In this document: piece by piece, positions 98 to 51,352 of the stretch
Numbering within the stretch: the stretch's first letter is position 1
Layout of the letters: each line of letters begins with the position of its first letter
Assembly: GCF_001953305.1 (NCBI RefSeq)
Contig: NZ_MTFE01000010.1
Span: 665,306-716,657, forward strand
Length of the DNA: 51,352 bases
Direction of reading: 5' to 3'
Origin: Cnuella takakiae
GTDB taxonomy: Bacteria > Bacteroidota > Bacteroidia > Chitinophagales > Chitinophagaceae
Program-made: the position numbers and the translations under genes
Notes under the pieces: generated by a model
What the model was told of the DNA's origin: nothing
The model's input: only the letters and a program-made list of their open reading frames with translations
Databases searched by the model: none

Positions 98-153
98 GAT
101 CGTGAATCGTGGGGCGTTCGTCGTCTGTTGTCTGTTGTCCATCGCCCATCACC
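98..153. repeat. Degenerate heptad repeat array, 8 units
   Basis: The 56 bases read as eight consecutive 7-bp words, for example GATCGTG, AATCGTG, TGTTGTC (twice), CATCGCC and CATCACC. It ends 18 bases before the ATG of the first small gene. No complementary arm was found here, unlike most other arrays of this type in the window. Confidence 0.6.
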
Positions 154-171
154 AAATTCAAACTATCCCAT

Positions 172-396
172 ATGGAAGAACTTTTCACTACCCAGATTTC
201 TCAAGGTGCCGGCAGCATGGCCTACCGTGTGGTATTTGACCAGGAGCAGTACCAGTTTATTCCCAATGGTTTTGAAGGCAGCAGCTTTGCCTTTCGCCGG
301 GAGCACGACGAGTGGCACCCGGTGGAACCCTTGCCCGAGACAGTGCAGGACCAGGCAGTGGAAGCACTGGAAAAATACCTCCTCTCGCAGCATTAG
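172..396 (+). CDS. Small conserved-looking hypothetical protein (74 aa)
   Basis: The ATG at 172 gives a 74-aa acidic protein without a signal peptide or membrane segment. An upstream in-frame start at 109 would run through the heptad repeat array, so 172 is preferred. The product has alternating hydrophobic and aromatic residues in the first 50 positions (AYRVVFDQEQYQF) and an amphipathic C-terminal helix ending EALEKYLLSQH. I do not recognise a named family. It lies directly upstream of the 2H phosphoesterase gene, separated by a 35-bp REP-like palindrome that begins six bases after the stop. It is therefore probably transcribed on its own. Function unknown. Confidence 0.6.
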   Translation: MEELFTTQISQGAGSMAYRVVFDQEQYQFIPNGFEGSSFAFRREHDEWHPVEPLPETVQDQAVEALEKYLLSQH

Positions 397-401
397 CTTT
401 T

Positions 402-436
402 CAACCCTATAAGGTTTTAAAAACCTTATAGGGTTG
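402..436. repeat. REP-like palindrome, class B
   Basis: A 35-bp near-perfect palindrome with 17-bp arms (left arm CAACCCTATAAGGTTTT) around a single central A. It lies just after the stop of the 74-aa gene and could act as a terminator. The same core, CCTA(T/C)AAGG with its complement, recurs at 29309-29343 close to the RAYT transposase gene. Confidence 0.75.
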
Positions 437-501
437 CCCGTACAGCAAGCTGCAGAAATCCTTCCTGGCAATTCTTTCAAAATCCTATCAATCACTGGTT
501 C

Positions 502-1023
502 TTGGTTCCCCTCATCCTTACGCTTCACCTCGACGAGGCTTCCTTTCAGTACTTCAACCAGTTGCGCAAAGCGCATTTTCCACCGGAGCGCAACTTTATA
601 GCTGCGCACCTGACGCTTTTTCACCACCTGCCCGATACACCTGAACTGCGGCAGCAGCTTGCCGGTGCTGCAGGCACCCAACAGCCCTTGCAGCTGGAAG
701 TTACCGGCCTGCGGTCGTTGGGTGGTGGCGTGGCTTTCCGCCTGCACTGCCCGCCTTTGCAGGCCTGGCACCGGCAGCTGCAGCAACAATGGTTTGACCT
801 GCTCACCCCGCAGGACCGGCAGCCCCTGCAGCCACATATAACGGTACAAAACAAGGTAATGCCGCCAGCAGCCCGCCAGCTCTTACAACAGCTTGAAGCC
901 GGTTTCACCCCATTCCACGTGCAGGCAGCCGGCGTACAGCTATGGGCTTATATGGGCGGTCCCTGGCAGCTATTGCAGGATTACCCTTTTGCTTCCTCTT
1001 CCGGCCAGGCGGCTGCAGTTTAG
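502..1023 (+). CDS. 2H phosphoesterase family protein (2'-5' RNA ligase / LigT-like)
   Basis: The 173-aa protein carries two H-x-[ST]-h signatures of the 2H phosphoesterase superfamily: HLTLFHHL at about residue 36 and PHITVQNKV at about residue 111. The length and the spacing of the two motifs fit single-domain LigT-like enzymes, which hydrolyse or ligate 2'-5' or cyclic phosphodiester bonds in RNA or nucleotides. The actual substrate cannot be told from sequence. The likely start is TTG at 502, because no in-frame ATG lies between the class B palindrome and the conserved N-terminal strand (LILTLHL). It is cytoplasmic, with no signal peptide. It is the last gene before an 800-bp gap. Confidence 0.85.
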   Translation: MVPLILTLHLDEASFQYFNQLRKAHFPPERNFIAAHLTLFHHLPDTPELRQQLAGAAGTQQPLQLEVTGLRSLGGGVAFRLHCPPLQAWHRQLQQQWFDLLTPQDRQPLQPHITVQNKVMPPAARQLLQQLEAGFTPFHVQAAGVQLWAYMGGPWQLLQDYPFASSSGQAAAV

Positions 1024-8203: not shown

Positions 8204-8688
8204 GTACATCATGGTTTATGCCGTAGCCAGGGAGCAAAAACCTGTATGTATCAATTTGGAAGGCACTTCCTACAGGTTGGGGCAATAATTGACGGGATCC
8301 TTATCCTGCACATTAAAATATACACGGCGCCTGTTTGATGGGCTTTATCCTATTTGGCTGAAGGCCCATCGCCAGCATCCTAGTATGCCCAAGCTATGAG
8401 GACTACGTATTTATCATAAGCGAAACCACGCAATACTCAATCCCGGTATTTACGGGCAAAAAAGAGTAGTGTTGCCGCCATTTTCGAAAAAATTCTAATA
8501 TGGCGTAGTGGTAAACCCTAACTGGAAAGATGGTGGTTATTATGTAGTACAGTTTATTTCAGGTTATAATGTATCATTATGCGCTATATATATAGTTGCT
8601 TTGCAAAAAAATCCATTTGCGCTAGCCGTTCCCCCATTTGCCCGGTGGTGCCGGTATCTTTTTGCCTGATGGAGCATACCTATTATTC
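8204..8688. other. 485-bp intergenic region between the two giant genes
   Basis: No gene was seen. A weak inverted repeat GATGGGC (8337-8343) with GCCCATC (8364-8370) could be a terminator, though without a T-run. The 13-mer GCCCAAGCTATGA at 8387-8399 is shared with the region upstream of the first giant gene. The last 180 bases are AT-rich and presumably carry the promoter of the second giant gene; I could not place a clear -7 box. Confidence 0.45.
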
Positions 8689-11600
8689 ATGTATCCAATC
8701 TTTGCTGCCCGCCTCTTGCGCAACGAGCAACCCCGTGCTGCCCGTACCCAACCTGCTTTGCCTGTATTGAAAAACAAAAACTTCGTTTTCCTGGCCGTGC
8801 TCACCCTGGTTTGCACCCTGGTTGCCGGTGCCAAAACAACCGGGCGTCTCGAGGGAGCACCCATTGAAAAAACCATCCAGCATACCCGCACCAGCCTGGT
8901 GGAGAAGATCGGCAAAGCCCTGCAGGTGCCCGGTGCAGCAACCCGGTTCTTCCAGTTGTTCAACGGTGGCGCCAGCCAGCCTTCTGCTTTTTGGCAGGCA
9001 CGCCTGGCCATTTTGGCCAATAATCCCGAAACCGCACTGAGCGTAAGCATCCAGCAGTTGAGCAACGAGCAGCTGAGGGGTGCCTATGGTGCTTTTACCC
9101 GTAAAGGGGTAAACGGCCAGCCTGCCATTTACCTCAACCATTACTGGCTGGAACAACTGGCCAGCAAATCGGGTGTGGAAAGGGTACTGGCAGAGGAAAT
9201 GGGCCATGCAATTGATTATTACCTCAACGGCAACCTGGAAACCCCCGGCGACGAAGGCGAGGCTTTTGCCCACAGCCTGCTGCACCTGCCGGTAAATGAA
9301 GCGGAAGCCAAACGCATGGCGGAAGAGAACGACATAGAGGCACTGGTAATAGCGGGCAAGGAAGTAGTGGTGGAAGAAGCTACCATTTATTTCAACAATA
9401 TGTACAAGGGTACGGGTATGTATACCTTGCAGGACAACACGGTAACTGGTATACAGCCTATTGCCGGGTCAGGATTTCGTTTTACTTCAGCCAACCCCAA
9501 TGATGCCACTTTTGTAAAAAGCGGCAATAACGTAAGTGGTTTTATAACCTATGTGGACGTTAACGGCGTGGTGCAAACCCTGACCGGTGTTATTTCACGC
9601 CAGGATAAATCAGGATCCACCACCACTGCACTCCAGTTTCTGCTGGCAACCAACCCCACCAACACCACACAGGCACAGGTTTACTGGCTGATTATGCCTG
9701 GCCACGAATCGCGTTACAGTACGGGTGGTACCATCACCACTTCTTCGGACCCCAACTACGACCGGGATATGAACACCGTGCTGGCCAACCAGCAGAGTGC
9801 GCCTAAAATAACCGTAAGCAATCCTACGGTTGCAGAAAATGCAGGTTCGGTTGTTTTCGACCTGACAGTAAGCCCCAATGCTACTTCCACCTATTCTTTT
9901 ACCCCCACGCTTACTGCGGTAACAGCTGTTGCCGGCACCAACTACACAACAACCGGCATACAGTATAAAACCAATAGCAACGGTACCTATACCAATTACA
10001 CCGGTGGCGCCCTTTCTTTTGGTACAACGGTAAACAGCATACAGATCAAAGTGCCTGTACTGAATGATGGCGTAACTGCACCCACCTTGTATTTCAACCT
10101 GAATACAGGTGCCATTTCCAACGGGGGCATCTTAAACAATGCAGGCGCTTATGGGCAGGCAGGCATTACCGATGTGACGCCGGCCTCAACCATTACGCAT
10201 GCCGATGTGGTAAAAACCTATGGCGATGCAGCCTTCTCCCTGAACCCTACTTCTAATAATGCTACGGGTGCATTCAGCTATGCCGTTACCGGAAACGGTA
10301 ATGTATTGTCGGCCAGCGGCAACAACTTTACTATCCTGGGCGCCGGTACCACCCAGATCACTATTACCCAGGCTCCCGGAAGCGGTTATGGTCAGGGTAC
10401 CAAGGTGGTGAATGTTACCGTAAACAAAGCCAGCCTTTCGGTAACGGCTGATGGTAAAACAAAAACTTATGGCGGGGCCAACCCCACGCTGACGGCTTCT
10501 TACAACGGGTTTGTTTACAACCAAAACCTGGCAAGCAGCGGCGTAACCGGCACACCCGCCCTGTCTACTACCGCTACTGCTACCAGCGCTGTTAATACTT
10601 ACCCTATTACTGCTGCCGTGGGTACGCTTGTTTCCGGCAACTATAGCTTTACCTATACCCCGGGTACGCTTACCGTGAACAAAGCAACGGTAACCGTTCG
10701 GGCCGACGACCAGGTGAAAACTGCCGATGGCCAGCCCTTTACAGCATTTACCTCCAGCTACTCGGGCTTTGTAAATACCGACAACAGCTCCGTGGTGACC
10801 GGCTCCATTATTTATGGCGGGGCTGCCACTACTGCTACTGCGATTGGTACTTATGCTATTGTACCTGATGTAAGTGGCCTCAGTGCCGCCAACTACAACT
10901 TTGTGGCATCAGGCACCGATGGTACCCTCACAATTTCCAACCAAACGGTTGCACCTATTACCCAGGCGGATATTGTAAAAACCTATGGTGACAACAGTTT
11001 CACCATGAGCCCCATTTCGGCCAATACTACCGGTGCTTATACCTACCAGGTAACGGGTGCTGCCGGTGTGGTAACCGAAAGCAACGGCACTTTCACCATT
11101 GTGGGTGCGGGTACCACGCAAGTAACCATCAGCCAGGCTTCGGTGGGTGCTTATGCGCCGGGTACCAAAGTGGTAAACGTTACGGTAAATCCCCGTACCC
11201 TGACGGCCACCGCTACCGCCACCTCCAAAATGTACGATGGCAATAACACGGCTGCCGTATCCCTCGGCGATGACCGCCTGGCTGGTGATGCTGTAACGGT
11301 AAACTATACCGGCGCTACGTTCAACAATGCCAACGTGGGCACCAACAAAGCAGTAACGGTTTCAGGCCTGAGTCTTTCGGGTACTGCTGCTGGCAATTAT
11401 ACTTTGGCAGCTACCACCGCTTCAGCCAACGCAGATATTACTGCTGCACCGGTAACCGTTACCGTTGCACAAACTTCCAAAACTTATGGTACGGCTGATC
11501 CTGCGTTTACCTATACAGCCGCAGGCCTAATAGGCAGCGACCAGCTGACCGGCACGGTAACCCATGCTGCCGGTATCACTGTGGGTACCTATGCTTTCAG

Positions 11601-14600
11601 CGGCCTGAGCAACAGCAACTATACCGTAACCTTTGCGCCTGCCAGCTTCAGCATTGTGCAGGCTACCCTGGTGGTGACGGCTGCTGCAACCGATAAACAA
11701 TATGACGGCAATAACACTGCTACTGTAACCCTGGGCGATAACCGGGTGGTTGGTGACCAGGTGACCGTTTCCATTACAGGTGCCACCTTTAGTGATGCCA
11801 ACGTGGGTAATGGTAAAACGGTTACTGTTGCAGGTCTGAGCCTGTCGGGTACAGATGCCGGTAACTATATATTGGCCGCAAATACTGCAACGGCTACTGC
11901 CAGCATTACGGCCAAACAGGTAACGGTTGTCGTGAGCCCCGCTTCGAAAGTTTATGGCACCACTGACCCCAATTTTACAGCTATACCCACCGGGCTGGTA
12001 GGCAACGATGTGCTCACCGGAACCCTGGTGCGTGCCAGTGGTTCGGCTGTGGGTACCTATGCCTTTAGCGGACTGAGCAACGGCAACTATACTATTATAT
12101 ATAATAACAGCTTTGCCATCACACCAGCAACGCTGACCGTAACTGCTTTGGCCTCCGGCAAGCAGTACGATGGCAACAACACGGCAAGTGTTACGCTGAA
12201 CGACAACCGCGTAAGCGGCGACCAACTGACGGTAAGCAATACCGGCGCAACCTTCAGCAACGCCAACGTAGGCAACGCCAAAACCGTTACGGTTGCAGGC
12301 CTGGGCGTTTCGGGTGCCGATGCAGGCAACTATACCTTGGCTGCTACCAGCATTACCACTACTGCCGATATCACGGCTGCCGCAGTAACCGTGGTGGTGA
12401 GCCCCACAACCAAAGTGTATGGCGCTGCCGATCCCGCATTTACCTACACATCTACCGGCCTGGTGGGCAGCGATGCGCTGACCGGCTCGGTTACCCGTGC
12501 TGCAGGTACTGCAGTAGGCAGCTATGCCTTCAGTGGTTTAACCAACAGCAACTATACTATTACATATAGCCCTGCCAGCTTCGGCATCACTGCACGTACG
12601 CTTGTGGTAGCCGCTTCGGCCAGCAATAAAACCTATGATGGCAACAGCACGGCTACCGTTTCGCTGAACGACAACCGCGTAAGCGGCGATGTGTTCACTG
12701 TAAACCGCACCTCGGCTACCTTCAGTGATGCCAACGTAGGCAATGGTAAATCCGTGACTGTTGCAGGCCTGAGCATCTCGGGTGTTGATGCCGGTAATTA
12801 TACCCTTGCTGCAACAACAGCTACCGCTACTGCCGACATTACAGCCAAGACTGTGACCGTAGCAGTGACGCCCGCCACCAAAGTGTATGGTGCTGCCGAT
12901 CCTTCGTTTACCTATAACCAAACAGGACTGATAGGCCAGGACCAACTGACCGGCACCATCACCCGCGCTGCCGGTACCGGTGTGGGTACCTATACGTTCA
13001 GCGGCCTGAGCAACGGTAACTATACTATTACATATAGCCCTGCCAGTTTCAACATCACTGCCCGTACGCTTACCGTCACAGCTACTGCCAGCAACAAGCC
13101 CTATGATGGCAACAACACCGCTACCGTAACCCTGGCCGATGACCGGGTGGCTGGTGATGTGTTTAACGTAAACCATACTGCCGCCACCTTTAACGATGCC
13201 AATGCCGGCAATGGTAAAACCGTAACCGTTGCAGGCCTGAGCCTGACGGGTGCTGCTGCCGGCAATTATACCCTGGCTGCAAATACTGCAACGGCTACTG
13301 CCAGCATCACGGCAAAGGCAGTTACTGTAACTGTGGCACCTGCTACCAAAATATATGGTGCTACCGATCCCCTGTTTACCCCAACCATCACCGGCCTTGT
13401 AGGCAGCGATGTGCTGAATGGTTCCCTGGTGCGTGCTGCAGGAAACGGTGTGGGTACTTATGCCTTCAGTGGTCTGATCAACAGCAACTATACCATTACC
13501 TATAGCCCAGCCAGCTTTGGCATCACTGCACGTTCGCTGAACGTAACCGCCACGGCCAACAACAAGCCTTATGATGGCAATACCGCGGCTGTTGTAAACC
13601 TGGGCGACAACCGCGTGGCCGGTGATGTGCTGACCGTAAACTATACTGCGGCCACGTTCAACAATGCCAATGCAGGTACGGCCAAGCCCGTAACGGTTAC
13701 CGGTATCAGCATCGGCGGTATGGCTGCTGCCAACTATACCCTGGCTGCTACCAGTGCCGCTACCACGGCCAATATCACGGCGGTGCCTGTAACGGTTACC
13801 GTGTCGCCTGTTTCCAAACCTTTGGGAACACCTGACCCCGTATTTACCTACACCACTGCAGGCTTGCTGGGCAGCGATGTGCTCACGGGTACCGTGGTGC
13901 GTGCCACCGGTGAAACCATGGGTACTTATGGCTTTAGTGGTTTGGCCAACAGCAACTATACTATTGCCTATACCCCTGCATCGTTCACCATTACGCAGAG
14001 CCCGCTTGCTATCAGCGGCCAGCCACAGGGTGCAGCGCTTTGCCAGGGTGGTACCCTCAGTCTTTCGGTAACGGCGGCAAATGCTACGGGTTACCAGTGG
14101 TATAAAAACGGGGTGGCCATTAGCGGTGCTACCAGCGCCACATATGTCAAGAACAACCTGACTGCCGCTGACGCAGGCACCTATACGGTGGTTGTAAGCG
14201 CAGCAGGCAACGTTACCGTTACCAGCGCCAATGCTACCGTAACGGTGAGCCAGCCGGTAACGGCGGCCATCACCCCTGGCGGCAGCGCGGCCTATTGCCC
14301 CGGATCTTCGGTGGTGCTCTCGGCCAACAGCGGCGCGGTATCCTACCAGTGGCTGCGCAACGGTACCGCCATCAACGGCGCTACTGCCCGCACATATACC
14401 GCAACGGCTCCCGGCAGCTATACGGTTGTGATCAATATGGGTACGGCCTGTGGCAATACCACCAGTGCTGCCTTTGTATATGCCATGGACCCCGCAGGCG
14501 ACTGCGATGGCGATGGTATCACCAACAGCATTGAGTGCCCTTCGCTGGGTGCCAGCTGTGCGGATACCGATGGTGATGGTACTCCCGACTACCTGGACCT

Positions 14601-16963: not shown

Positions 16964-17542
16964 ATGACTACAGAAGTACTTACCGCTACCGCCATGGGTA
17001 TTGCCCTGAGTGCCTGTTGCGGCTTCCGGGTGTTCATCCCGGTGCTGGCGGCCTCGCTTGCCGGCAGGCTGGGTGTGGTAGACCTGCCCACCGATATGGA
17101 TTGGATGGCATCCCTGCCCGCCCTGATTGCTTTTGGGCTGGCAGCCGTACTGGAAATAGCGGCTTACTATATTCCCCTGGTAGACAACCTGCTCGATACC
17201 ATTGCAACGCCACTTTCGGTGGGAGCAGGTACGGTACTGGCTTCTTCTTTATTGCCGCTCACCGAAGCGGAGCCCTTGCTGCGCTGGGGCACGGCCCTGG
17301 TGGCGGGTGGTGGTGCAGCCGGCACCATTCAGTTGGGTACAGGCCTGCTGCGGCTGATCTCTTCCAAAGCAACTGCCACCGTGGGCAACCCGGTGGTGGC
17401 CACTACCGAGAATGCCGCCGCAATAGGGGGCGCCATTTTCAGTTTTATCATACCGGTGGTGCTGGCGCTGATCTTATTGGTGCTGGTGGTGTGGGTGTTG
17501 GGAAAACTGGTGCGGACGGCGAGGAGGATGGGAAATGGATGA
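16964..17542 (+). CDS. DUF4126 family membrane protein
   Basis: 192 aa from the ATG at 16964 (MTTEVLTATAMGIALSACCG). An in-frame extension back to 16727 lacks the family pattern and crosses the spaced inverted repeat, so it is rejected. The protein has about four hydrophobic segments, with glycine-rich middle parts (GTALVAGGGAAGTIQLGTG), and ends in a strong helix (FIIPVVLALILLVLVVWVLG) followed by a basic tail. This matches DUF4126 inner-membrane proteins of unknown function. The last codons and the TGA stop lie inside a heptad repeat array. It is convergent with the following gene. Confidence 0.8.
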   Translation: MTTEVLTATAMGIALSACCGFRVFIPVLAASLAGRLGVVDLPTDMDWMASLPALIAFGLAAVLEIAAYYIPLVDNLLDTIATPLSVGAGTVLASSLLPLTEAEPLLRWGTALVAGGGAAGTIQLGTGLLRLISSKATATVGNPVVATTENAAAIGGAIFSFIIPVVLALILLVLVVWVLGKLVRTARRMGNG

Positions 17543-17635
17543 TAGCCCATGGATAATGGACGATGGACCATGGTAGGAAAAGCTGCCTACTTTCCATAGT
17601 CTATCGTCAATGGACCATGGTCTGTCCTCAATGCT
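17528..17635. repeat. Heptad repeat hairpin between convergent genes
   Basis: The left arm is seven 7-bp words (17528-17576, for example ATGGATA, ATGGACG, ATGGACC). The right arm is six words (17594-17635, for example CCATAGT, CTATCGT, CCATGGT), partly complementary to the left. The array includes the stop codons of both flanking genes. It may serve as a two-way terminator. Confidence 0.75.
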
Positions 17636-18302: not shown

Positions 18303-18362
18303 GGTTAGCGGGTTTGGTTTCAAGTTCGGAAAAAAACCAAAACCACAGGGGGAATAAAGATG

Positions 18363-18435
18363 ATGGACGATAGACCATGGACCATAGTAAGAATAGTTGC
18401 CTTCTTTCCACCGTCCATGGTCCATCGTCCATGGT
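18363..18435. repeat. Heptad repeat hairpin between mqnC and the secreted hypothetical gene
   Basis: Left arm words ATGGACG, ATAGACC, ATGGACC and ATAGTAA (18363-18390); right arm words CCACCGT, CCATGGT, CCATCGT and CCATGGT (18408-18435). The arms are complementary over most of their length, with a TTC/GAA closing near the loop. Confidence 0.75.
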
Positions 18436-18442
18436 CTGATTC

Positions 18443-19567: not shown

Positions 19568-19574
19568 AGAACTG

Positions 19575-19582
19575 CAAATTTA
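19575..19582 (-). promoter_or_regulatory. Possible -7 box of mqnC
   Basis: The minus strand reads TAAATTTG, matching the Bacteroidota consensus TAnnTTTG. It lies only 8 bases from the mqnC ATG, which would give an almost leaderless mRNA, and no good -33 TTTG is seen. Tentative. Confidence 0.3.
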
Positions 19583-19650
19583 GGTTACCGGGCTTTCCCT
19601 TTTACGAAGGAGCAGAAACAGAGCGAATTGGGGGTTAACTTTAAGAAAAT

Positions 19651-19720
19651 AGTTTGGGGTTAGGAGTTTGGGGTTTGGGATTAAACCAACCCCAAACCCC
19701 AAACTCCTAACTCTTAACCT
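19651..19720. repeat. Heptad repeat hairpin in divergent promoter region
   Basis: Seventy bases reading as ten in-phase 7-bp words, five on the left (such as AGTTTGG, GGTTAGG) and five on the right (such as CAAACCC, CTAACTC). TTAGGAGTTTGGGGTTTGGG pairs perfectly with its complement over 20 bp. It ends five bases before the retropepsin ATG. Confidence 0.85.
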
Positions 19721-19725
19721 AATCC

Positions 19726-22858: not shown

Positions 22859-24136
22859 GTGCATCGAATTATTCCAAACAATAAAATTTTTACCAACGTG
22901 GTTCAGTTTGACCGATTTGTGCTGGCTAACGGCCTGCGGGTGCTGGTGCACCAGGATACTTCCACGCCCATGGCGGTGGTGAACGTGATGTACGATGTGG
23001 GTGCCCGGGACGAAAACCCTGCGCAAACGGGCTTTGCGCACCTCTTTGAGCACCTGATGTTTGGCGGCTCCATCAACATCCCCGAATACGACGAGCCCCT
23101 GCAGATGGCCGGAGGCGAGAACAATGCCTATACCTCCAACGACGTTACCAACTACTATATACAGCTGCCCGCCGACAACATTGAGACGGCCTTTTGGCTG
23201 GAAAGCGACCGCATGCTGTCGCTGGCCTTTACCGATAAAAGCCTGGATGTGCAACGCAAGGTGGTGTGCGAGGAGTTCAAGGAGCACTACCTCAACAAAC
23301 CCTATGGCGACGTGTGGCTGAAGATGCGCGAGCTGGCCTATACCACGCATCCTTACCGCTGGATGACCATTGGTAAAGAGTTGTCGCATATTGAAAATGC
23401 GCAGCTGCAGGATGTAAAGAATTTCTTCTTCAAACACTACCGGCCCAACAATGCCATATTGGTGGTGGCAGGTAATGTTACTACAGAAAAGGTGAAGGAA
23501 CTGGCGGAAAAATGGTTTGGTCCTATCGAGGCGGGTGAGCCCTATGTGCGCAACCTGCCGCAGGAGCCCGCACAATCGGCGCCCCGCAAACTGGAAGTGA
23601 ACGCACCCGTGCCGCTGGATGCTTTATACAAATGCTGGCATATCTTTTCGCGTACGGATGACCGTTATTATGGCACCGACCTCATTACCGAAATCTTGGG
23701 TGGCGGCGGCTCATCCAGGCTGTACCAGGCCCTGGTAAAAGAGCAGAAGCTTTTTTCCAATATCGAGTGTTATCACCACGGCACCATCGATGCGGGTCTG
23801 CTCACCATTGAAGGCAAGCTGGTAAAAGGCGTGAACATCGCCGATGCGGAAAAAGCCATCGATGCCGAACTGGAAAAACTGAAAGCCGAGATCATCAGCG
23901 AAACAGAACTGCAGAAAGTGAAGAACAAAACCGAGAGCATGATTGCTTTTGAAGACATGAGCGTGATGAACCGCGCCAACAGTCTTGCGTTTTACGAACT
24001 GCTGGGCGATGCCACCATGATGAATACCGAACTGCAGCGCTACCAGAAAGTATCGGCGCAGGACATTCACCAACTGGCCAACGATATTTTTAAAGAAAGC
24101 AACTGCAGCACGCTGTGGTATTTATCAAAAAACTAA
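22859..24136 (+). CDS. M16 family zinc peptidase, catalytic subunit
   Basis: 425 aa. The inverted zinc motif HLFEH (HxxEH) lies in GFAHLFEHLMFGGS near residue 62, with the distal glutamate in the CEEFKEHYLNKPYG region about 75 residues on, so the active site looks complete. The C-terminal M16 half (about 235-400, including LITEILGGGGSSRLYQALV) follows. The start is GTG at 22859; no in-frame ATG precedes the conserved FDRFVLANGLRVLVH strand. There is no signal peptide, so it is probably cytoplasmic or exported by an unusual route. It pairs with the next gene, a non-catalytic M16 homologue, as in two-subunit M16B peptidases. Confidence 0.9.
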   Translation: MHRIIPNNKIFTNVVQFDRFVLANGLRVLVHQDTSTPMAVVNVMYDVGARDENPAQTGFAHLFEHLMFGGSINIPEYDEPLQMAGGENNAYTSNDVTNYYIQLPADNIETAFWLESDRMLSLAFTDKSLDVQRKVVCEEFKEHYLNKPYGDVWLKMRELAYTTHPYRWMTIGKELSHIENAQLQDVKNFFFKHYRPNNAILVVAGNVTTEKVKELAEKWFGPIEAGEPYVRNLPQEPAQSAPRKLEVNAPVPLDALYKCWHIFSRTDDRYYGTDLITEILGGGGSSRLYQALVKEQKLFSNIECYHHGTIDAGLLTIEGKLVKGVNIADAEKAIDAELEKLKAEIISETELQKVKNKTESMIAFEDMSVMNRANSLAFYELLGDATMMNTELQRYQKVSAQDIHQLANDIFKESNCSTLWYLSKN

Positions 24137-24208
24137 AAGTCAAAAGGCAATATTCAAAAACGCTCGAAATGGGCAAGGTCACTTGACTTTTGATTTTTGC
24201 CTCAATAG
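24134..24208. repeat. Heptad repeat hairpin between the two M16 genes
   Basis: Left words AAAAGTC, AAAAGGC, AATATTC (from the stop codon of the first gene); right words ACTTGAC, TTTTGAT, TTTTGCC. AAAGTCAA pairs with TTGACTTT. It interrupts an otherwise operon-like pair. Confidence 0.6.
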
Positions 24209-24217
24209 CCCAACTCC

Positions 24218-25516: not shown

Positions 25517-25646
25517 AATTAGCTAATTAGCCAATGAGCTAATGTGCTAAGCCGTTCTTAGTGCAATAGCAGCTACTTTAGCGCATAAACAAAGATGCTG
25601 GGTTAAGCTTTAGCACATTATCAATTTAGCTCATTAGCAAATCAAC
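25517..25646. repeat. Octad (8-bp) repeat hairpin
   Basis: Left arm words of 8 bp such as TAATTAGC, CAATGAGC and TAATGTGC (25517-25550); right arm TTAGCACA, TTATCAAT, TTAGCTCA and TTAGCAAA (about 25610-25641). The arms are largely complementary, with about 58 unrelated bases between. It begins right after a stop and ends before the next start. Confidence 0.75.
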
Positions 25647-29873: not shown

Positions 29874-29880
29874 GGTGAAT

Positions 29881-29996
29881 GTTTGTTGTTTTTGGTTTTT
29901 GTTTTCAGTTGGATCAAACCTTTACCTACAAAGGCTTATTTGATCAATGCAACGATAAACCAAAAACTAAAAACAAAAAACTCAAAACCCCTTACT
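29881..29996. repeat. Heptad repeat hairpin
   Basis: Left words GTTTGTT, GTTTTTG (twice) and TTTTCAG (29881-29908); right words ATAAACC, AAAAACT, AAAAACA, AAAAACT and CAAAACC (29955-29989). The arms are complementary T-rich and A-rich tracts. The right arm includes the last codons and stop of the adjacent minus-strand gene. Confidence 0.7.
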
Positions 29997-30722: not shown

Positions 30723-30772
30723 GCCGGGCAAATAACGAAAGAATAAGTGAATGGTATGGTAAAAGCAACCGG

Positions 30773-30842
30773 GTTTGGGGTTAGGAGTTTGGGGTTAAGG
30801 GTTACAACCCCAAACTCCTAACCCCAAACACTTAACTATTCC
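30773..30842. repeat. Heptad repeat hairpin with perfect 24-bp stem
   Basis: Ten in-phase 7-bp words. The left arm 30773-30796 (words GTTTGGG and GTTAGGA alternate) is exactly complementary to 30806-30829, around a 9-base loop. The stop codon of the serine hydrolase gene (30836-30838) lies in the last word. The words match those of the array at 19651-19720. Confidence 0.9.
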
Positions 30843-32119: not shown

Positions 32120-32151
32120 ATTGTGTTTGGTTTGGAAGAGTTTTAGAGGCA

Positions 32152-32270
32152 ATGGACGATGGACCATGGACCATGGACCATGGTCTATCGTCTATCGTCT
32201 ATGGTCTATGGTCTATGGTCTATGGTCTATGGTCTATGGTCATTGACGACTGACGACTGACGACTGACGA
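32152..32270. repeat. Longest heptad array, 17 in-phase units
   Basis: 119 bases made of seventeen 7-bp words with no phase slip. They fall in blocks: ATGGACG/ATGGACC (4), ATGGTCT and ATCGTCT (9 in all, including a final ATGGTCA), and TTGACGA/CTGACGA (4). The ATGGACC block is complementary to the GGTCT-type block. Further words CGTCGTC, CGTAGTC and TGTCGTC at 32327-32356 complement the last block. Confidence 0.9.
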
Positions 32271-32362
32271 CTCAAAAAAAGCCACCTAAGATACAACACA
32301 CCCTCCTTCCTTTATCCGCAACCTACCGTCGTCCGTAGTCCTAGTGGTCTGTCGTCCTGCCT

Positions 32363-34569: not shown

Positions 34570-34627
34570 GCCTTAGCCATAAGAAAGCACAACACGACGA
34601 ACTCAATTTTTATCAAATAAAATAGTG

Positions 34628-34643
34628 TCCCGTACCCACGGGA
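34628..34643 (+). other. Stem-loop before actB
   Basis: TCCCGT pairs with ACGGGA around ACCC, ten bases before the actB ATG. It may influence translation or stability of the actA-actB message. Confidence 0.35.
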
Positions 34644-34652
34644 TGGAGTAAC

Positions 34653-37600
34653 ATGGAAAATAAGTATTGGCAAAGTTTCGCTGAGCTGAACGACAACGAG
34701 AATTTTCAAAAGCAAAACAAAGACGAGTTCCGCGAAGAGCTGCCTTTTGGAGATATCGATGATAAAGGTCTGCTCGACAGCAAAACACCACGCCGTGATT
34801 TCCTGAAATACCTGGGCTTCTCTACTGCCGCAGCATCGCTGGCAGCCTGTAAGCAGCCCGTACGCAAAGCCGTTCCTTATGTAAACCGCCCCGAAGAAAT
34901 CGTTCCCGGTGTGGCTTCTTACTATGCTACCACTTTTACCACCGATGGTGAAGTGCTGCCCATCGTTGCCAAAGTGCGCGATGCACGCCCCATCAAAATA
35001 GAAGGTAACACCGTGTGCTCGTACACACTGGGTGGTACCTCGCCCCGCGCACAGGCTTCCGTACTGGACCTGTACGACACTTACCGCCTCACACATCCCC
35101 GCCGCAAGCAGGGCGACAAGTACCAGGAGATCCCTTCTTTCGATCAGCTGGACAAACAGGTAACAGAAGCACTGGCAGGCCTGGGTGGCCGCCCCGTGGT
35201 TCTGCTTACCCATACCATTGCCTCTCCTTCTACCCAACAGGTAATCAGCGAATTCCTGGCTAAATACCCCGGAAGCCGCCACGTTCAGTACGATGCTGTT
35301 TCGTACAGTGGTATGCTGCTGGCCAACGAAGCTTCGTTTGGTCGCCGTGTACTCCCCACCTTCGAGTTCGACAAGGCTGATGTGATTGTTAGCCTTGGCG
35401 CCGACTTCCTCGGTACCTGGGTAAGCCCCGTTGAAAATGCCCGCAAGTATTCTTTCGGCCGCAAGATCAACGAGCAGAACCCCACCATGAGCAAGCACTA
35501 CCAGTTTGAGTCGTACATGAGTATGACCGGTGCTTCTGCCGATGAGCGCTTTACCCACCGTCCTTCGGAAACCGGTGCTGTGGCACTGGCCCTGTTGCAG
35601 GCTGTAGGTGGCGCCGTTAGCGCTCCCGCCATTGCCGATGCAAAGCTGAAGGCAGGCATTGCCAAGGTAGCCGCCGACCTGAGAAAGCACAACGGCCGTG
35701 CCTTGGTGGTATGCGGAAGCAACGACCCCAACGTACAACAGGTGGTAAACGCCATCAACGCCGCTGTAGGCGCTGTGGGCACAACCCTCAACTTTGCCCA
35801 GCCCAACCTCACCAAGGCTGGTGTAGATAAAGACCTGGTAGACCTGGTAGCGCAAATGAATGCCGGTCAGGTTGGTGCCCTGCTCATTGCCGGTGCCAAC
35901 CCCGCCTACGAGTACTTTGATACAAAGGCTTTTGCGAGCGCCCTGCAAAAAGTGAAGTTCTCTGTTTCTTTCAACGAGAAAGCAGATGAAACTACCGAGC
36001 TGACCACCTACCAGGTGCCCATGCACCACTACCTGGAAAGCTGGGGTGATTTTGAACCTAAAACTGGTTATTTCGCCTTCCAACAGCCTACCATTGCGCC
36101 CCTGTTCAAAACCCGTCCGTTCCAAACCTCGCTGCTGAAGTGGGCTGGCAACGGTACTGATTACGATACTTATTTCCGCCAGTTCTGGATCAGCCGCCTG
36201 GGAGGTTTGCCCGCCCTGGACAAGGCCCTGCAGGATGGTGTGCTGGAGGGAGGTACTGCCGCCCGCAGCCTGGCAGGTATTGCCGCTGCTGCCGTTAGCG
36301 ACAGCACAGTAGCTGCTCGTGTAGTTACTTCGGTAGGTGGTGCTTCCTTCAACGGAGCCGGTGTAGGTGCTGCCGCTGCAGCCATCGCTGCCACCAAAGC
36401 AGGGAAGGACGAACTTGTTATTTACCAGAACATAGCCATGGCTTCCGGTAAGCAATCGGGCAACCCCTGGCTGCTGGAAGTTCCCGATCCGATCACCAAG
36501 GCTACCTGGGACAACTACGCCATGATCTCTACTGCCAAGGCAGACGAGCTGGGCATCAAATACAAAACTTCCGATTACGAATATTACCCCGACAAGCCGG
36601 TAATCAAAATCAGCGTAGCCGGCAAAGAAGTAAGCCTGCCCGCACTGGTAATCCCCGGTATGAACGCCAACACCATTGCAGTAGCTGTAGGTTATGGCCG
36701 CAACGCTGGATTTGGCAAAGCTTCTGAAGGTGTAGGTAAAAATGTTTTCCCCTTTGCCCGTTTCAACGGCACCACTGTTGACTATTCCAACAACGTTACC
36801 GTTGCTGCCGAAACCTTTGGCACGGAAAAGGTTGCTCAAACGCAGATCCACCAGTCGTACGAGGGCCGTACCGAAGTAGTAAAGGAAACAACCCTGGCTA
36901 CCTTCGTTGCCAATCCAACCATGTTCTCTTCTTTCCGCGAAGAGCTGGCAAAAGACTATGCGCCCAAAAGTGGTGACTACCGCAAGGAAGCTACCCTTTA
37001 CGGCGACCACGTACAGCCCGGACCCAAGTGGGGCATGTCTATCGACATGAACTCCTGTATCGGTTGCCAGGCCTGCGTTGTAGCCTGCCACACCGAGAAC
37101 AACGTTCCCGTGGTAGGTAAGAGTGAAGTGCTGCGTTACCACGATATGCACTGGCTGCGTATCGACCGCTACTTTGTGAGCGACGAGAACAACCCCGATG
37201 ACGTAAAAGCGGTGGTGTTCCAGCCCATGATGTGCCAGCACTGCGACAACGCGCCTTGCGAAAACGTATGTCCCGTAGCTGCTACCATGCACAACGAAGA
37301 AGGTATCAACCAGATGGCCTACAACCGTTGCATCGGTACCCGTTATTGCGCCAACAACTGTCCTTATAAAGTACGCCGCTTCAACTGGGCCGATTACACC
37401 GGCGCCGACTCGTTCAAAGACAACCAGGACCAGAAACTGGTAGGCGAGCTGGACCCCGTAGTATTCCAGATGAACGACGAGCTGACCCGCATGGTACTCA
37501 ACCCCGACGTTACCGTGCGCAGCCGTGGTGTAATGGAAAAATGCTCTTTCTGCGTACAGCGTACCCAGGCAGGCAAGCTGAAGGCAAAACTGGAAAACCG

Positions 37601-37913
37601 CCAGCTGAAAGGCGACGAAATCCAGAGCGCCTGTGCCCAGGCCTGTCCTACCGGTGCCATCGTTTTCGGAAACGTAAACGACGAAACCAGCACGGTAGCA
37701 CAGCTGCGTGAAAACAACAACGGCCGCCTGTTCTACGTAATCGAGCAGATCCACACCCTGCCTAACGTAAGCTACCTGGCCAAGATCCGCAACACCGAAG
37801 AGATCGTACAGGTGAAGCGTGAAACTGCCGGTGGCGAACACCAGGGCCAAGGTGAAACACCGGGTGCCAACGCCGACCAGAAAGCAGAAAAAGCAGGTCA
37901 CGAAGCGCACTAA
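34653..37913 (+). CDS. actB: ACIII subunit ActB, molybdopterin-like and iron-sulfur fusion
   Basis: 1,086 aa. A TAT-like twin arginine segment ([21 protein letters not shown]47-R48) ends in a lipobox-type cysteine (C66), so the protein is likely a periplasm-facing lipoprotein. The large middle part resembles molybdopterin oxidoreductases, which in ACIII lack the cofactor. The ferredoxin-like C-terminal part (about 800-1010) has [35 protein letters not shown] and CSFC with CAQACPTGA, ligating four clusters. Thr in place of Cys in CIGTRYC suggests that one is a 3Fe-4S cluster, as known for ACIII. The C-terminal tail is polar and alanine-rich. Second gene of the operon. Confidence 0.95.
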
Positions 37914-37946
37914 TCAAGAGGACGGAAAAAAGATAATAGAAAAGAA

Positions 37947-37988
37947 AACAGCTAACGGCTAGCAGCTTAAAGCTAAAAGCTAAATCAT
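37947..37988. repeat. Heptad array between actB and actC
   Basis: Six 7-bp words (AACAGCT, AACGGCT, AGCAGCT, TAAAGCT, AAAAGCT and AAATCAT) run right up to the actC ATG at 37989. There is no separate complementary arm, but AGCT-centred words can self-pair. Confidence 0.75.
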
Positions 37989-39433: not shown

Positions 39434-39535
39434 AGCTGTTGGCCATTAGCTTTTAGCTGTTGGCCAACTTAAAAGATAATTGAAAGGATAAAACAGGATT
39501 AGCTAACCGCTAACCGCCAAAAGCTAAAAGCTCCA
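39434..39535. repeat. Heptad repeat hairpin between actC and actD
   Basis: Left words AGCTGTT, GGCCATT, AGCTTTT, AGCTGTT and GGCCAAC (39434-39468); right words AGCTAAC, CGCTAAC, CGCCAAA, AGCTAAA and AGCTCCA (39501-39535). The arms are partly complementary (TTAGCTTTT with AAAAGCTAA). The left begins three bases after the actC stop and the right ends two bases before the actD ATG. Confidence 0.8.
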
Positions 39536-47570: not shown

Positions 47571-47594
47571 TCAACTCTTAAACGCATTATACAA

Positions 47595-48032: not shown

Positions 48033-48060
48033 GGTTTAACCAATATTGTCAATTTCTACA

Positions 48061-49091: not shown

Positions 49092-49624
49092 GTTTCGTTA
49101 TTCAAAAAAATGATGGCCTTGCCAAAGGCCTGATCTGGGCGGTATCTTTTGTGGTATTTGCCGTTGTTGTAATCCTTGGCCGGGTAAAACTGGAAGTGGA
49201 CCTCGGCTTCGATGTACACGTTTTTGCGGCCATAAATGCCGTGATCAATTCTGTTGTGGCCTTCCTGTTGGTTTTAGGCCTGATATCGGCTAAAAAGGGC
49301 CAGTATGAGCGGCACAGACGTACTATGATGGCTGCCATCCTGCTGTCGCTGGTGTTCCTGGTATTTTATATTGCCCACCACCTGCTGGCAGGCGATACCC
49401 GCTTTGGCGGCGAAGACGCCATCCGGTATATCTACTACTTTATCCTGATCACCCATATTATCCTGGCAGCCATCATCTTGCCCTTTATCCTGTTTACAGC
49501 ATACCGTGCACTGATTGGTGAAAATGTGGCGCACCGCAAGCTGGCAAAGATCACCTGGCCCATTTGGTTTTATGTGGCGGTAACGGGGCCGGTAGTGTAC
49601 CTGCTGATCAGCCCGTATTATTAA
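49088..49624 (+). CDS. DUF420 family membrane protein
   Basis: 178 aa, five transmembrane helices, start overlapping the sco stop by four bases, so translationally coupled. Conserved positions of DUF420 are visible: HVFAAINAVINSVVAFLLVLG, KGQYERHRRTMMAAILLSLVFLVFYIAHH, HIILAAIILPFILFTAYRAL and HRKLAKITWPIWFYVAVTGPVVYLL. Paired histidines in the helices resemble haem or copper ligands. DUF420 members, such as CtaM, are needed for maturation of some haem-copper oxidases; that role is plausible here from position. Confidence 0.88.
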   Translation: MSFVIQKNDGLAKGLIWAVSFVVFAVVVILGRVKLEVDLGFDVHVFAAINAVINSVVAFLLVLGLISAKKGQYERHRRTMMAAILLSLVFLVFYIAHHLLAGDTRFGGEDAIRYIYYFILITHIILAAIILPFILFTAYRALIGENVAHRKLAKITWPIWFYVAVTGPVVYLLISPYY

Positions 49625-49629
49625 GTTTA

Positions 49630-49765
49630 TTGTTTTTGGTTTTTTGTTTTGAGTTATTAGCAAAGCAAAAACCTACAATTTGATGCCGGCTGCATTGTGT
49701 AGCCGGCATCTTTGTTTGGATCCAGGAACAAAAAACGAAAAACCAAAAACAAGAAACCCAAAACA
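49630..49765. repeat. Heptad repeat arms flanking a terminator
   Basis: Left words TTGTTTT, TGGTTTT, TTGTTTT and GAGTTAT (49630-49657); right words ACAAAAA, ACGAAAA, ACCAAAA, ACAAGAA and ACCCAAA (49728-49762). The two arms are complementary and enclose the rho-independent terminator at 49682-49717. Confidence 0.75.
49682..49717 (+). terminator. Rho-independent terminator after DUF420 gene
   Basis: GATGCCGGCT pairs perfectly with AGCCGGCATC around a 9-base loop, followed by TTTGTTT. Confidence 0.88.
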
Positions 49766-49790
49766 TGTTTTCCCTATCTTGCCACACCGC

Positions 49791-51296
49791 ATGAAGCTCC
49801 TTAGCCCTGCCATATCAAGATTTGCCCGGATGCGCCTCTGGTCGGCCGAACAGTGGATAACCGATCCCTTATCGGCGCAGCACAATGTGTGGCAGGACTT
49901 GCTGGCTGCCGGCCAGTATACGGAGTTTGGCCGGCAGCACCGTTTCTCCGCCATCCAATCCATTGCCGATTACAAGAAGACCGTACCCATTAGTGAGTAT
50001 AACGATCTCAAGCCTTTTATTGAACGCATGATGGAAGGGGAGGAGAACGTGTTGTGGAATACGCCGGTGAAATGGTATGCTAAAAGCAGCGGCACTACAT
50101 CCGACAAAAGCAAGTTCATACCTGTATCGGAAGAGAGCCTTGCCGACAACCACTACAAAGCCTCCAAGGATGTACTGTCATTTTATTATGCATCGCATCC
50201 CGATAGTGATTTGCTTACAGGCAAGAGCCTGGTGATTGGTGGCTCACACCAAATAAACCAGGTAAACGAAGAAGTGCAGTATGGCGATTTGAGTGCGGTG
50301 ATCCTGCAGAATTCTCCTTTCTGGAGCAACTGGATCCGCACGCCTGATTTGTCCATCGCGCTTATGGATGAATGGGAAGAAAAGATAGAGGCGCTGGCGC
50401 AAAGCACCATCAACGAAAATGTAACCTCGATGGCCGGGGTGCCCACCTGGTTGATTGTATTGCTCAAAAGAATACTGGAAATAACAGGCAAGCAAAACAT
50501 CAAGGAAGTTTGGCCCAGCCTCGAATTGTACCTGCATGGCGGGGTAAGCTTTGTGCCATACAAAGCGCAGTTCGAAAAACTCATTGGCGCACCCATCAAC
50601 TACCTCGAGATGTACAATGCATCTGAAGGTTTCTTTGCCGCACAGGATGAACTGGGTGCCGATGGCATGTTGCTGATGTGCGAACATGGCATCTTCTACG
50701 AGTTTCTGCCTGCCGATGAGTGGGGTAAGGAAGATGGCCAAACCATACTGTTGGAGGAAGTGGAATTGGGTAAGAATTATGCACCGGTGATCACTACCAA
50801 TGGAGGACTTTGGCGTTACCTGATTGGCGATACCATCCAGTTTATTTCCCTTGCGCCCTACCGCATCAAGGTATCGGGCCGCATCAAGCATTTCATCAAT
50901 GCCTTTGGCGAAGAGGTGATCATTGATAATACGGATGCCGCTATTGCCGCTGCCTGTAAAGCAACAGGGGCCATTGTAAACGATTACACCGCAGCACCGC
51001 TTTATTTTTCAGATGAAGGCAATGGCGCCCACGAGTGGCTGATTGAATTTGACAAGCTGCCAGAAAACCTGGAAGCATTTGTTGCCGCAATGGACGGCCA
51101 CCTGCGCAGCATCAACAGCGACTACGAAGCCAAGCGCCACAAGGATATCGCCCTGCGCATGCCGGTAGTGCATGTGTTGCCTACAAATACTTTTACTGAT
51201 TGGCTGGCTTCAAAAGGAAAGTTGGGTGGCCAACATAAGGTGCCAAGGTTGGCGAATGACAGGAAGGTGTTGGAGGAGATATTGGGGAATAGGTGA
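49791..51296 (+). CDS. GH3 auxin-responsive promoter family protein (acyl-adenylate synthetase-like)
   Basis: 501 aa from the ATG at 49791; the frame extends to 49680 but that part overlaps the terminator and heptad arms. The ATP-binding loop WYAKSSGTTSDKSKFIPVS is the motif of the GH3/ANL adenylating superfamily, followed by SLVIGGSHQ, YNASEGFFAAQDELG and TTNGGLWRYLIGDTIQF, all standard GH3 positions, and a C-terminal INAFGEEVIIDN segment. Plant GH3 enzymes join amino acids to acyl acids; bacterial members are numerous in Bacteroidota and of unknown substrate. The stop codon TGA is the first triplet of a heptad array. Confidence 0.9.
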   Translation: MKLLSPAISRFARMRLWSAEQWITDPLSAQHNVWQDLLAAGQYTEFGRQHRFSAIQSIADYKKTVPISEYNDLKPFIERMMEGEENVLWNTPVKWYAKSSGTTSDKSKFIPVSEESLADNHYKASKDVLSFYYASHPDSDLLTGKSLVIGGSHQINQVNEEVQYGDLSAVILQNSPFWSNWIRTPDLSIALMDEWEEKIEALAQSTINENVTSMAGVPTWLIVLLKRILEITGKQNIKEVWPSLELYLHGGVSFVPYKAQFEKLIGAPINYLEMYNASEGFFAAQDELGADGMLLMCEHGIFYEFLPADEWGKEDGQTILLEEVELGKNYAPVITTNGGLWRYLIGDTIQFISLAPYRIKVSGRIKHFINAFGEEVIIDNTDAAIAAACKATGAIVNDYTAAPLYFSDEGNGAHEWLIEFDKLPENLEAFVAAMDGHLRSINSDYEAKRHKDIALRMPVVHVLPTNTFTDWLASKGKLGGQHKVPRLANDRKVLEEILGNR

Positions 51297-51352
51297 TTGG
51301 TGATTGGTGATTGGTGATTGGTGATTGGTGATTGGTGATTGGTGATTGGTGA
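51294..51352. repeat. Perfect heptad array TGATTGG, eight units, running off the window
   Basis: Eight identical 7-bp units from 51294 to 51349 plus TGA at the edge. The first TGA is the stop codon of the GH3-family gene. Its perfect identity suggests a recent expansion. The array continues beyond the window, so its full length and any complementary arm are unknown. Confidence 0.95.

What the first reader, a model, noticed from the sequence alone, without database searches (positions are those of the whole stretch)
98..51352. Family of 7-bp-period (heptad) repeat hairpins in spacers across the window
At least a dozen spacers (98, 17528, 18363, 19651, 24134, 29881, 30773, 32152, 37947, 39434, 49630, 51294) contain runs of degenerate 7-bp words. 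The words differ between loci (ATGGACC, GTTTGGG, AGCTAAC, ACAAAAA, TGATTGG), but the period is constant. Most loci have two arms whose words are reverse complements, so the arrays form hairpins that seem to evolve together by slippage and compensatory change. Cyanobacterial STRR heptanucleotides, and the heptad arms of the Nostoc tRNA-Leu intron P6b stem, are the closest known parallel. I know of no such description in Bacteroidota. A constant period with free sequence suggests a generating mechanism, such as a polymerase, repair or nuclease footprint, rather than a conserved binding site.
Basis: partly seen in the sequence, partly recalled or inferred. Interest (0 to 1): 0.85.

Follow-up and report, generated by a model that had tools for sequence, protein, structure and literature searches.

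The report
Paired seven-base repeat arms between genes
Stretches between genes in this Chitinophagaceae genome and many relatives carry short tandem repeats with a 7-base (less often 8- or 9-base) unit, often as a facing pair near the two edges of the gap; they resemble repeats already described in Xanthomonas, but here the repeated word differs between species while the layout stays.

Summary
Eleven of the 12 named loci have strong lag-7 arrays; 24134 is weak. In 20 own-genome stretches placed without regard to content, period 7 gives 48 spacer arrays, periods 8 and 9 give 9 and 7, the other periods from 2 to 13 give 0-2; shuffles of the whole sample give 0. It recurs in 41 of 80 named loci.

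The interpretation needs changing. (1) Period is not one constant: 8- and 9-bp families exist. (2) Words are not free: they form genome-wide families that differ between species. (3) Arms pair, but without arm-by-arm compensation: partners are no more complementary than arms of other elements of the family. (4) Inverted pairs have a strong polarity, G-richer arm first: 77 of 84. (5) Loops are hardly shared.

The closest published case is Xanthomonas GGGAATC repeats with convergent pairs (PMC4692102). Heptamers in Bacteroidetes were already in print (PMC4679880, PMC4060949). Best reading: dispersed non-coding repeats shaped by slippage within arms and exchange of units among arrays; the mechanism is inferred. 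New here: several species-specific word families, replaced in both arms at orthologous spacers.

The parts
99..153 (.). period-7 array (GTCGTCT/GTTGTCC words), single, no partner array found in the spacer
17534..17573 (.). left arm, ATGGACC family (convergent spacer 17543-17627; the array reaches into the end of the left ORF call)
17594..17633 (.). right arm, inverted partner of 17534-17573
18359..18385 (.). left arm, ATGGACC family
18407..18436 (.). right arm, inverted partner
19652..19682 (.). left arm, GTTTGGG family, in a divergent spacer
19688..19718 (.). right arm, AACCCCA, ends 7 nt before the ATG at 19726
24126..24217 (.). weak, degenerate AAAAGTC-type hairpin
   Evidence: p 0.017; z -1.8
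25609..25640 (.). right arm of the period-8 element (TTTAGCACATTAGCAA)
29880..29910 (.). left arm, GTTTTTG family
29951..29981 (.). right arm, AAAAACC family
30771..30804 (.). left arm, GTTTGGG family
30806..30836 (.). right arm, AACCCCA family
32152..32272 (.). longest array: ATGGACC then ATGGTCT units (self-complementary), then TGACGAC units
37925..37984 (.). single array before ActC (AGCTAAC units at its right end), ends 4 nt before the ATG
39448..39464 (.). left arm after the ActC stop (AGCTGTT family), as matched to the right arm
39502..39532 (.). right arm before the ActD ATG (AGCTAAC family)
49625..49660 (.). left arm, GTTTTTG family, starts directly after the stop codon
49718..49764 (.). 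right arm, AAAAACC family; a terminator-like hairpin lies between the arms
51297..51352 (.). left arm, GGTGATT x8, cut by the window end; partner arm at L086:1190-1218, outside the window

Best explanation
These are dispersed, non-coding tandem-repeat arrays of the same kind as the Xanthomonas GGGAATC heptamers. Several word families with a 7- (or 8-, 9-) bp unit are spread over the genome as short arms of a few units, mostly between genes and often as facing pairs with the G-richer arm first. Shown: sharp 7-9 bp spectrum, genome-wide species-specific words, strong polarity, position near spacer edges, units alike inside an arm, loops hardly shared, no arm-to-arm compensation, replacement of the word in both arms at orthologous spacers. 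Inferred: arms grow and shrink by replication slippage in steps of one unit; units of one family are exchanged between arrays at different loci, for example by a stalled nascent 3' end switching to another array of the family, which keeps a family alike genome-wide and lets a new word replace an old one; selection removes arrays from genes and many promoter regions. Pairing of each hairpin would then be a by-product of two arms of one family in fixed polarity, not the thing selected. What sets the 7-9 bp step and what seeds the second arm are not explained.
For: Spectrum 7>>8>9 with almost nothing at 2-6 and 10-13: own placed stretches 48, 9, 7, 80 named loci 103, 55, 8, Sediminibacterium goheungense 320 kb chosen by synteny 38, 12, 0. 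Families; ATGGWCCATGGWCCATGG has 20 overlapping matches at 11 places in this genome and 0 in 57 relatives, 17 of them congeners. Units are more alike inside an arm than between loci (0.42 against 0.26 in G058; same direction in four own families). Spacer pairs with similarity fall from 713 to 6 (G058) and from 246 to 11 (own) when arms are masked. Facing pairs; polarity 77 forward, 6 reverse, 1 tie over sets without overlap; GTS arms 17:0. Edges: 40% and 48% of arrays within 8 nt of a gene, null 13% and 17%. Word replacement with a conserved flank: S. goheungense against Sediminibacterium sp. Gen4. Same layout in Xanthomonas: PMC4692102, section 10 read.
Against: Exchange between loci predicts shared unit order, and this is weak: significant in 2 of 5 families tested (G058 GTS P 0.003, own ATGGACC P 0.01; others 0.16-0.84). 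Polarity does not follow from slippage or exchange alone, and has exceptions (3 of 14 pairs in G059 reversed). Clean indels of 7 or 8 are few. Arrays with different words recur in the same spacers more than expected (11 by rule, P 0.0003; 9 by eye, P 0.0015; 9 with spacers of 60 nt or more, P 0.0034), which could mean selection at those sites. Density by gene order is not uniform between samples.
Confidence: 0.4

Rival explanations
1. Binding arrays for trans-acting factors: each word family is a set of sites for a DNA- or RNA-binding protein, with a 7-9 nt step per bound unit; polarity marks gene edges; words change when the protein's specificity changes.
For: Genome-wide families with degenerate unit positions; concerted word change; polarity in all gene contexts and gene-edge position; recurrence at the same spacers with different words.
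Against: Seven or more families in this genome would need as many factors; single arrays are common (54 of 92 own array spacers). Whether flanked genes share a theme was not tested.
Confidence: 0.22
2. RNA hairpins selected for pairing (translation coupling, mRNA stability or 3' ends), kept by compensatory change.
For: Strong predicted stems at seven window loci; arms span stop to start in operons such as ActC-ActD; arrays are rarest in divergent spacers in four samples: own placed stretches, both G058 sets and the 80 loci.
Against: Partner arms no better matched than arms of other elements; no mirrored unit order; same paired layout in divergent spacers (19568-19725; 5 further matched pairs in G058 and G059); one pair is about 530 nt apart; in the window and in 10 own stretches next to it or to dense ones, divergent spacers are not the poorest.
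Confidence: 0.15
3. REP/RAYT-like or MITE elements moved by a Y1 (HUH) or other transposase in trans.
For: Dispersed intergenic inverted repeats; one clean gain or loss of an about 84-nt period-8 hairpin next to a gene end (G006 against G014); Y1_Tnp matches in 42 of 58 genomes and 8 of 10.
Against: Loops hardly shared; this genome has 2 Y1_Tnp matches; G025 (apparently the same genome as G062), dense in arrays, has only a broken copy and a weak match, while G018 has a full-length match but no array in 20 kb; no target duplication evident in the one clean case.
Confidence: 0.12
4. Local polymerase slippage alone, with a step set by the polymerase-DNA contact.
For: Sharp 7-9 bp spectrum; within-arm likeness.
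Against: Does not give genome-wide word families, same-word facing partner arms or polarity; period goes with the word family.
Confidence: 0.06

Closest known systems
GGGAATC heptamer repeats of Xanthomonas campestris and X. axonopodis, GGGGA(C/T)T of Nostoc PCC 7120 (Rehm et al. 2015, PMC4692102; passages and section 10 read)
   Same: Degenerate 7-bp unit, mostly four units, 186 and 183 arrays per genome, 89-93% intergenic, 70 and 75 pairs in convergent orientation, more between convergent (16%) than divergent ORFs (7-8%), length differs between related species.
   Different: One G-rich word per genome studied for G-quadruplexes there; here several word families per genome, most without G-tracts (judged from the words), periods 8 and 9 as well, another phylum, and whole-word turnover at orthologous spacers.
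TAACTGA direct repeats of Beggiatoaceae, cyanobacteria and five Bacteroidetes (MacGregor 2015, PMC4679880; abstract and sections 8, 10, 23 read)
   Same: Intergenic heptamers, often just upstream of start codons, in Bacteroidetes too; indels mostly in 7-nt steps between two Cyanothece strains.
   Different: One fixed word was surveyed, mainly direct repeats (one indirect repeat in the main genome); no paired polarity described in the parts read.
Over-represented 7-bp tandem repeats in prokaryote surveys (Huang and Mrazek 2014, PMC4060949; section 9 part 1 read)
   Same: 7n3 median score 0.75 for Bacteroidetes, 0 for 4n4, 5n4, 6n3 and 8n3 to 11n2 in that phylum.
   Different: In the part read: scores per repeat-unit length only; no pairing, words, polarity or comparison of orthologous spacers.
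REP/BIME elements with RAYT transposases (recalled; PMC3733652 and PMC6006769 seen only in a search listing)
   Same: Dispersed, intergenic, inverted arrangement.
   Different: A REP is itself a small palindrome with a tag (recalled and start of abstract of PMC3733652); here the arms are tandem arrays and the loops are unrelated.

Membership tests
Intergenic heptameric repeats of the Xanthomonas GGGAATC kind | degenerate 7-bp tandem units, few copies, in spacers | tested here: met
Intergenic heptameric repeats of the Xanthomonas GGGAATC kind | facing (convergent) pairs of the same word | tested here: met
Intergenic heptameric repeats of the Xanthomonas GGGAATC kind | G-tract word able to form G-quadruplexes | tested here: not met
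   by reading the words: only the GTTTGGG family has G-tracts; ATGGACC, AAAAACC, AGCTAAC, CCAATCA do not
REP/RAYT elements | short palindromic unit copied as a whole | tested here: not met
   loops hardly shared; 4 of 138 own arrays are themselves palindromic
REP/RAYT elements | a Y1_Tnp (RAYT) gene tracks the repeats | tested here: inconclusive
   G058 has 1 strong match, G025 a broken copy and a weak match though dense, G018 a full-length match without arrays in 20 kb
MITE | shared internal sequence and target-site duplication | tested here: not met
   internal sequence hardly shared; duplication not evident in one clean case, not tested further
Known structured RNA (Rfam 15) | match at gathering score | tested here: not met
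   0 matches in the window
Selected RNA hairpin | compensatory change between the arms of one element | tested here: not met

The most novel reading that the evidence does not exclude
A trans-templated end-extension system: an enzyme with a 7-9 nt template (or copying an array elsewhere) adds repeats of one word to DNA 3' ends that face a gap between genes. This would give at once the polarity (each 3' end facing the gap gets the G-richer word), the same word but unrelated unit order in the two arms, single arms, unshared loops, genome-wide words that change with the template, and the tight 7-9 nt step, as telomerase does at chromosome ends. No enzyme or template RNA was searched for, and older spacer sequence kept between some arms speaks against a single gap-filling event.
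Probability: 0.07. Interest if true: 0.92.

Novelty: new variant of a known kind. Interest (0 to 1): 0.58.

Why it matters
Heptamer excess in bacterial genomes was noted in 2007 (as cited in PMC4692102), with a polymerase-contact hypothesis but, in what I read, no test. Bacteria in which several words per genome are spread with a strong polarity, and swap at orthologous spacers between sister species, make the question testable: the step length, the source of a new word and the rule for polarity can each be followed. It also warns that strong predicted stems in these spacers are not by themselves evidence of selected RNA structure.

Tried and rejected
Mirrored unit order between arms: not found (unit-shuffle Fisher p 0.96 own, 1.0 others; 15 of 42 own and 23 of 54 other same-period pairs were left out because they scored under 10). 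Own partner better than other partners: not found (30 of 39 G058 and 14 of 26 own elements were testable). Shared unit order among loci: a first test looked strong for G058 (54 of 54 arms) but included 7 nt of flank; without flanks it is small, so it is not a main argument. An outer-to-inner gradient of GTS units, suspected by eye, did not hold (10:6 in mixed arms, 24 against null sd 12.6). Polarity from translation (G-poor leaders): background edges before starts are C-rich too, but the polarity of pairs is also seen in convergent spacers (13:2). Indels in steps of 7: too few alignable cases. Orthologues of 30836-32143 gave no conserved context. Rfam: no match. RAYT correlation: poor. Single-linkage word clustering merged 93 of 100 words and was replaced by seeds. 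Phylum-wide spread of the GTSARTR word: 33 of 296 genomes match, but the reversed-pattern control rings in 37 by my count, so the word itself is not special.

Samples, bias and double counting: the 20 stretches L016-L035 were placed without regard to content; L080-L089 were chosen next to dense ones or to the window; in S. goheungense 200 of 520 kb (regions C-F) were chosen near matches of the GTS pattern, so its counts are raised; one search separates these. L250-L261 were counted only; L255-L258 were picked around ATGGACC sites. The array at 51297 occurs twice (window and L086); removed. L199 lies inside the G058 sample and L205 is a G059 contig, so one search counted some pairs twice; one search recounts without overlap. 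Runs of N appeared as arrays and were excluded from then on. One search scored 40 of 83 candidates, so its 54 matches are a lower bound. Gene calls are home-made; starts are approximate and some spacers hold uncalled genes. Absence in one 20-kb stretch is weak: L117 (G024) has no array, while L192, from a contig of the same length, has two.
Full report
WHAT WAS CHECKED. The window (51,352 nt) lies at C1:665306-716657 of a 5.70 Mb genome in 10 contigs. It carries genes of alternative complex III (NrfD PF03916 at 37989, taken as ActC; ActD PF11821 at 39538). The best named match of the first protein is Paracnuella aquatica at 94% (best 80 of 574 kept, and records very near the window's own genome may be left out), so the host is taken as a Chitinophagaceae bacterium. 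In the window's spacers lag-7 identity is 0.314 against 0.260 after shuffling (z 10), with z 6.8 and 6.2 at lags 14 and 21; coding DNA shows no such excess.

SPECTRUM. Twenty 20-kb stretches placed without regard to content (291 spacers, 80.8 kb of spacer) hold 48 arrays of period 7, 9 of period 8, 7 of period 9, and 0-2 at the other periods from 2 to 13; coding DNA holds 1 of period 7. The whole own sample (window plus 30 stretches, 477 spacers, one array counted twice) gives 87, 15 and 14, 0-3 elsewhere, 0 in shuffles, 3 in coding DNA. Eighty named loci (1.50 Mb, 148 kb of spacer) give 103, 55 and 8, with 0-7 elsewhere, 0-2 in shuffles, and 13 of period 7 in coding DNA; 41 of the 80 loci have a period-7 array. 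Sediminibacterium goheungense gives 38, 12 and 0 in 320 kb chosen by synteny; with 200 kb chosen near a repeat word it gives 109, 33 and 0 at a slightly lower score. Of 20 further relatives, G051 had no usable sequence; of the other 19, one stretch of about 20 kb each, 6 had period-7 arrays, one more had periods 8 and 9 only, and 12 had none at 7-9. Density is patchy in the own genome: 12 of the 30 added stretches have no period-7 array, and three later unselected stretches hold 2. Two stretches from the same class and from the same phylum, both chosen near a word match, show arrays of period 7 or 8 and, in the first, facing pairs.

WORDS. Words are not random per locus. Identical-word pairs among own arrays number 136 against 14 when letters of each word are permuted. 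With seed families, 99 own arrays fall into ATGGACC/G 25, AAAAACC 24, AGCTAAC 16, CCAATCA 11, AACCCCA 6, AGCTTGC 6, ACTCATT 3 and 8 others. ATGGWCCATGGWCCATGG has 20 overlapping matches at 11 places in this genome and none in 57 relatives, 17 of them congeners, although congeners G003, G014 and G015 have heptads with other words. In S. goheungense (GTSARWA)x3 has 251 matches, and of the 100 listed nearly all are GTSAGTA with some GTSAATA; in Sediminibacterium sp. Gen4 it has 80, and the listed ones are mostly GTSAAAA, with GTSAGTA/GTGAATA as well (reversed control 0 and 3). A degenerate word GTSARTR occurs in 33 of 296 genomes of the phylum, this genome included, but its reversed control occurs in 37 by my count: heptads are widespread, this word is not special.

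PAIRS AND POLARITY. In spacers with two or more arrays the outermost two have complementary words in 22 of 38 (own) and 27 of 45 (others), against 8% and 11.5% after permuting partners, and match in direct orientation in 1 and 10. Over five data sets without overlap, 84 such inverted pairs have the G-richer arm first 77 times, the reverse 6 times, one tie: tandem 59:4, convergent 13:2, divergent 5:0; three of the six exceptions are in G059 (11:3). GTS-type arms of S. goheungense within 250 nt of each other are 17 facing, 0 back to back, 1 same direction. Over all arrays, single ones included, the bias is weaker (left G>C 48:10 and 82:16; right C>G 44:14 and 65:17); right arms in the -- context show none (7:7 and 6:6), and spacers without arrays are also G-poor before starts. 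Arrays sit within 8 nt of a gene in 40% (own, n 124) and 48% (others, n 186) against 13% and 17% expected. Arrays per kb, convergent/tandem/divergent: own placed stretches 0.66/1.76/0.24, G058 by synteny 3.54/1.79/0.72, 80 loci 1.85/1.41/0.31; but 2.61/0.84/1.20 in the 10 own stretches next to dense ones and 6.71/1.83/3.91 in the window.

THE ARMS DO NOT COMPENSATE. If base-pairing at each locus were maintained, a unit variant in one arm should meet its complement in the other. Shuffling unit order in one arm does no harm: Fisher p 0.96 for 27 own pairs and 1.0 for 31 others. More directly, an arm is no more complementary to its partner than to partner arms of other elements of its family: 16 of 30 above the mean in G058 (p 0.98) and 8 of 14 own (p 0.55). 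In G058 units are alike inside an arm (0.42) but in the partner arm only about as alike as at other loci (0.29 against 0.26); in the own AAAAACC and AGCTAAC families the partner arm is somewhat closer (0.11 against 0.05; 0.07 against 0.04), in the other two own families not. So each arm behaves mostly as its own slipping array.

WHAT IS COPIED. BLAST of the element at 18355-18442 lists 54 matches in the genome, itself included; 47 are 20-37 nt, arms only, and six are longer (53-86 nt) at 71-76% identity. Among 89 array spacers of S. goheungense, 713 pairs are similar with arms and 6 with arms masked; among 80 own, 246 and 11. Loops are therefore not what spreads. Order of units is shared between distant loci only weakly (2 of 5 families).

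ORTHOLOGOUS SPACERS. In 15 of 17 congeners with the full gene and 79 of 80 named loci (start of the next gene found by a rule of thumb) the ActC-ActD spacer shows AGCTAAC-type pairs in several lineages, other words in others (GTTTGTG, GTGAAAG, AAAAATT, period-8 AATTTGAA), or is short and without arrays. In S. goheungense against Sediminibacterium sp. Gen4, 77 syntenic spacers hold arrays in both 16 times, in one 16 times, in none 45 times. By a one-mismatch rule 5 of the 16 have the same word and 11 different (4.8 expected, P 0.0003); by eye 7 and 9 (P 0.0015; with spacers of 60 nt or more 9 against 4.4, P 0.0034). In two spacers about 8.5 kb apart both arms read AGTGAGT/ACTCACT in one species and AAGTSAA/TTSACTT in the other, with the flank AAAAGATCTAAAATAACTATGGACCAT conserved in the first. 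One hairpin of about 84 nt (period 8) is present next to a gene end in G006 and absent in G014. Over 224 syntenic pairs from 14 comparisons, some sharing a genome, arrays are in both 28 times, in one 28 times, in none 168 times.

READING. Unshared loops and the pairing test argue against copied hairpins and against selection on pairing; family words, facing partners and polarity argue against purely local slippage. I prefer slippage within arms plus exchange of units between arrays of one family, kept where harmless; this leaves polarity and the second arm unexplained, hence confidence 0.4. Binding arrays for trans-acting factors remain a serious rival. A telomerase-like trans-templated extension would explain most features but no enzyme or template was looked for.

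KNOWN OR NEW. Rehm et al. 2015 (PMC4692102; passages and section 10 read) describe for Xanthomonas degenerate GGGAATC heptamers, mostly four units, intergenic, with 70 and 75 convergent pairs, and quote the polymerase-contact idea for heptamers. MacGregor 2015 (PMC4679880; abstract, sections 8, 10, 23 read) and Huang and Mrazek 2014 (PMC4060949; section 9 part 1 read) record heptamers in Bacteroidetes. A 2025 survey (PMC12699852, passages only) names Bacteroidota among phyla with high short-tandem-repeat density. In the listings of nine literature searches I saw no description of several heptad word families per genome in Chitinophagaceae or of word replacement at orthologous spacers; the library holds only open-licence papers. 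The cyanobacterial STRR and tRNA-Leu intron P6b parallels were not checked. Hence: new variant of a known kind.

Noticed in passing
window 11524-13976: Tandem 468-bp repeats (71-74% matches) inside a 2,310-aa open frame (8638-15570), followed by 99-bp repeats at 14566-15094 whose consensus reads, by eye, like TDNDGIPD-type repeats.
   Followed up: no
window 34566-37910 (-): A 1,114-aa open frame lies antisense to the 1,086-aa frame 34653-37913 upstream of ActC; probably a by-product of codon usage.
   Followed up: no
window 397-501: Inverted repeat CAACCCTATAAGGTTTT / AAAAACCTTATAGGGTTG; similar short palindromes at L020:6306-6405 and L021:15164-15223.
   Followed up: no
L017:13376-13863, L017:15370-15920, L080:5349-5980: Separate long palindromes (CACTGTCATGCTGAACTTGTTTCAGCATCTCC-like); L017:15370 and L080:5349 share 87 nt at 84% outside the arms, unlike the heptad loops.
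   Followed up: partly
L081:10083-10126, L084:11416-11459, L023:9055-9125, L035:12538-12590, L080:18518-18583: A period-9 family (GGGAAAGAC) with nearly perfect units at these own loci, more uniform than most heptads.
   Followed up: partly
L117 (G024) and L192: No 7-9 bp array in the first 20 kb of a 593,438-nt contig, but two period-7 arrays in a stretch of a contig of the same length: a reminder that 20 kb without arrays does not make a genome array-free.
   Followed up: partly
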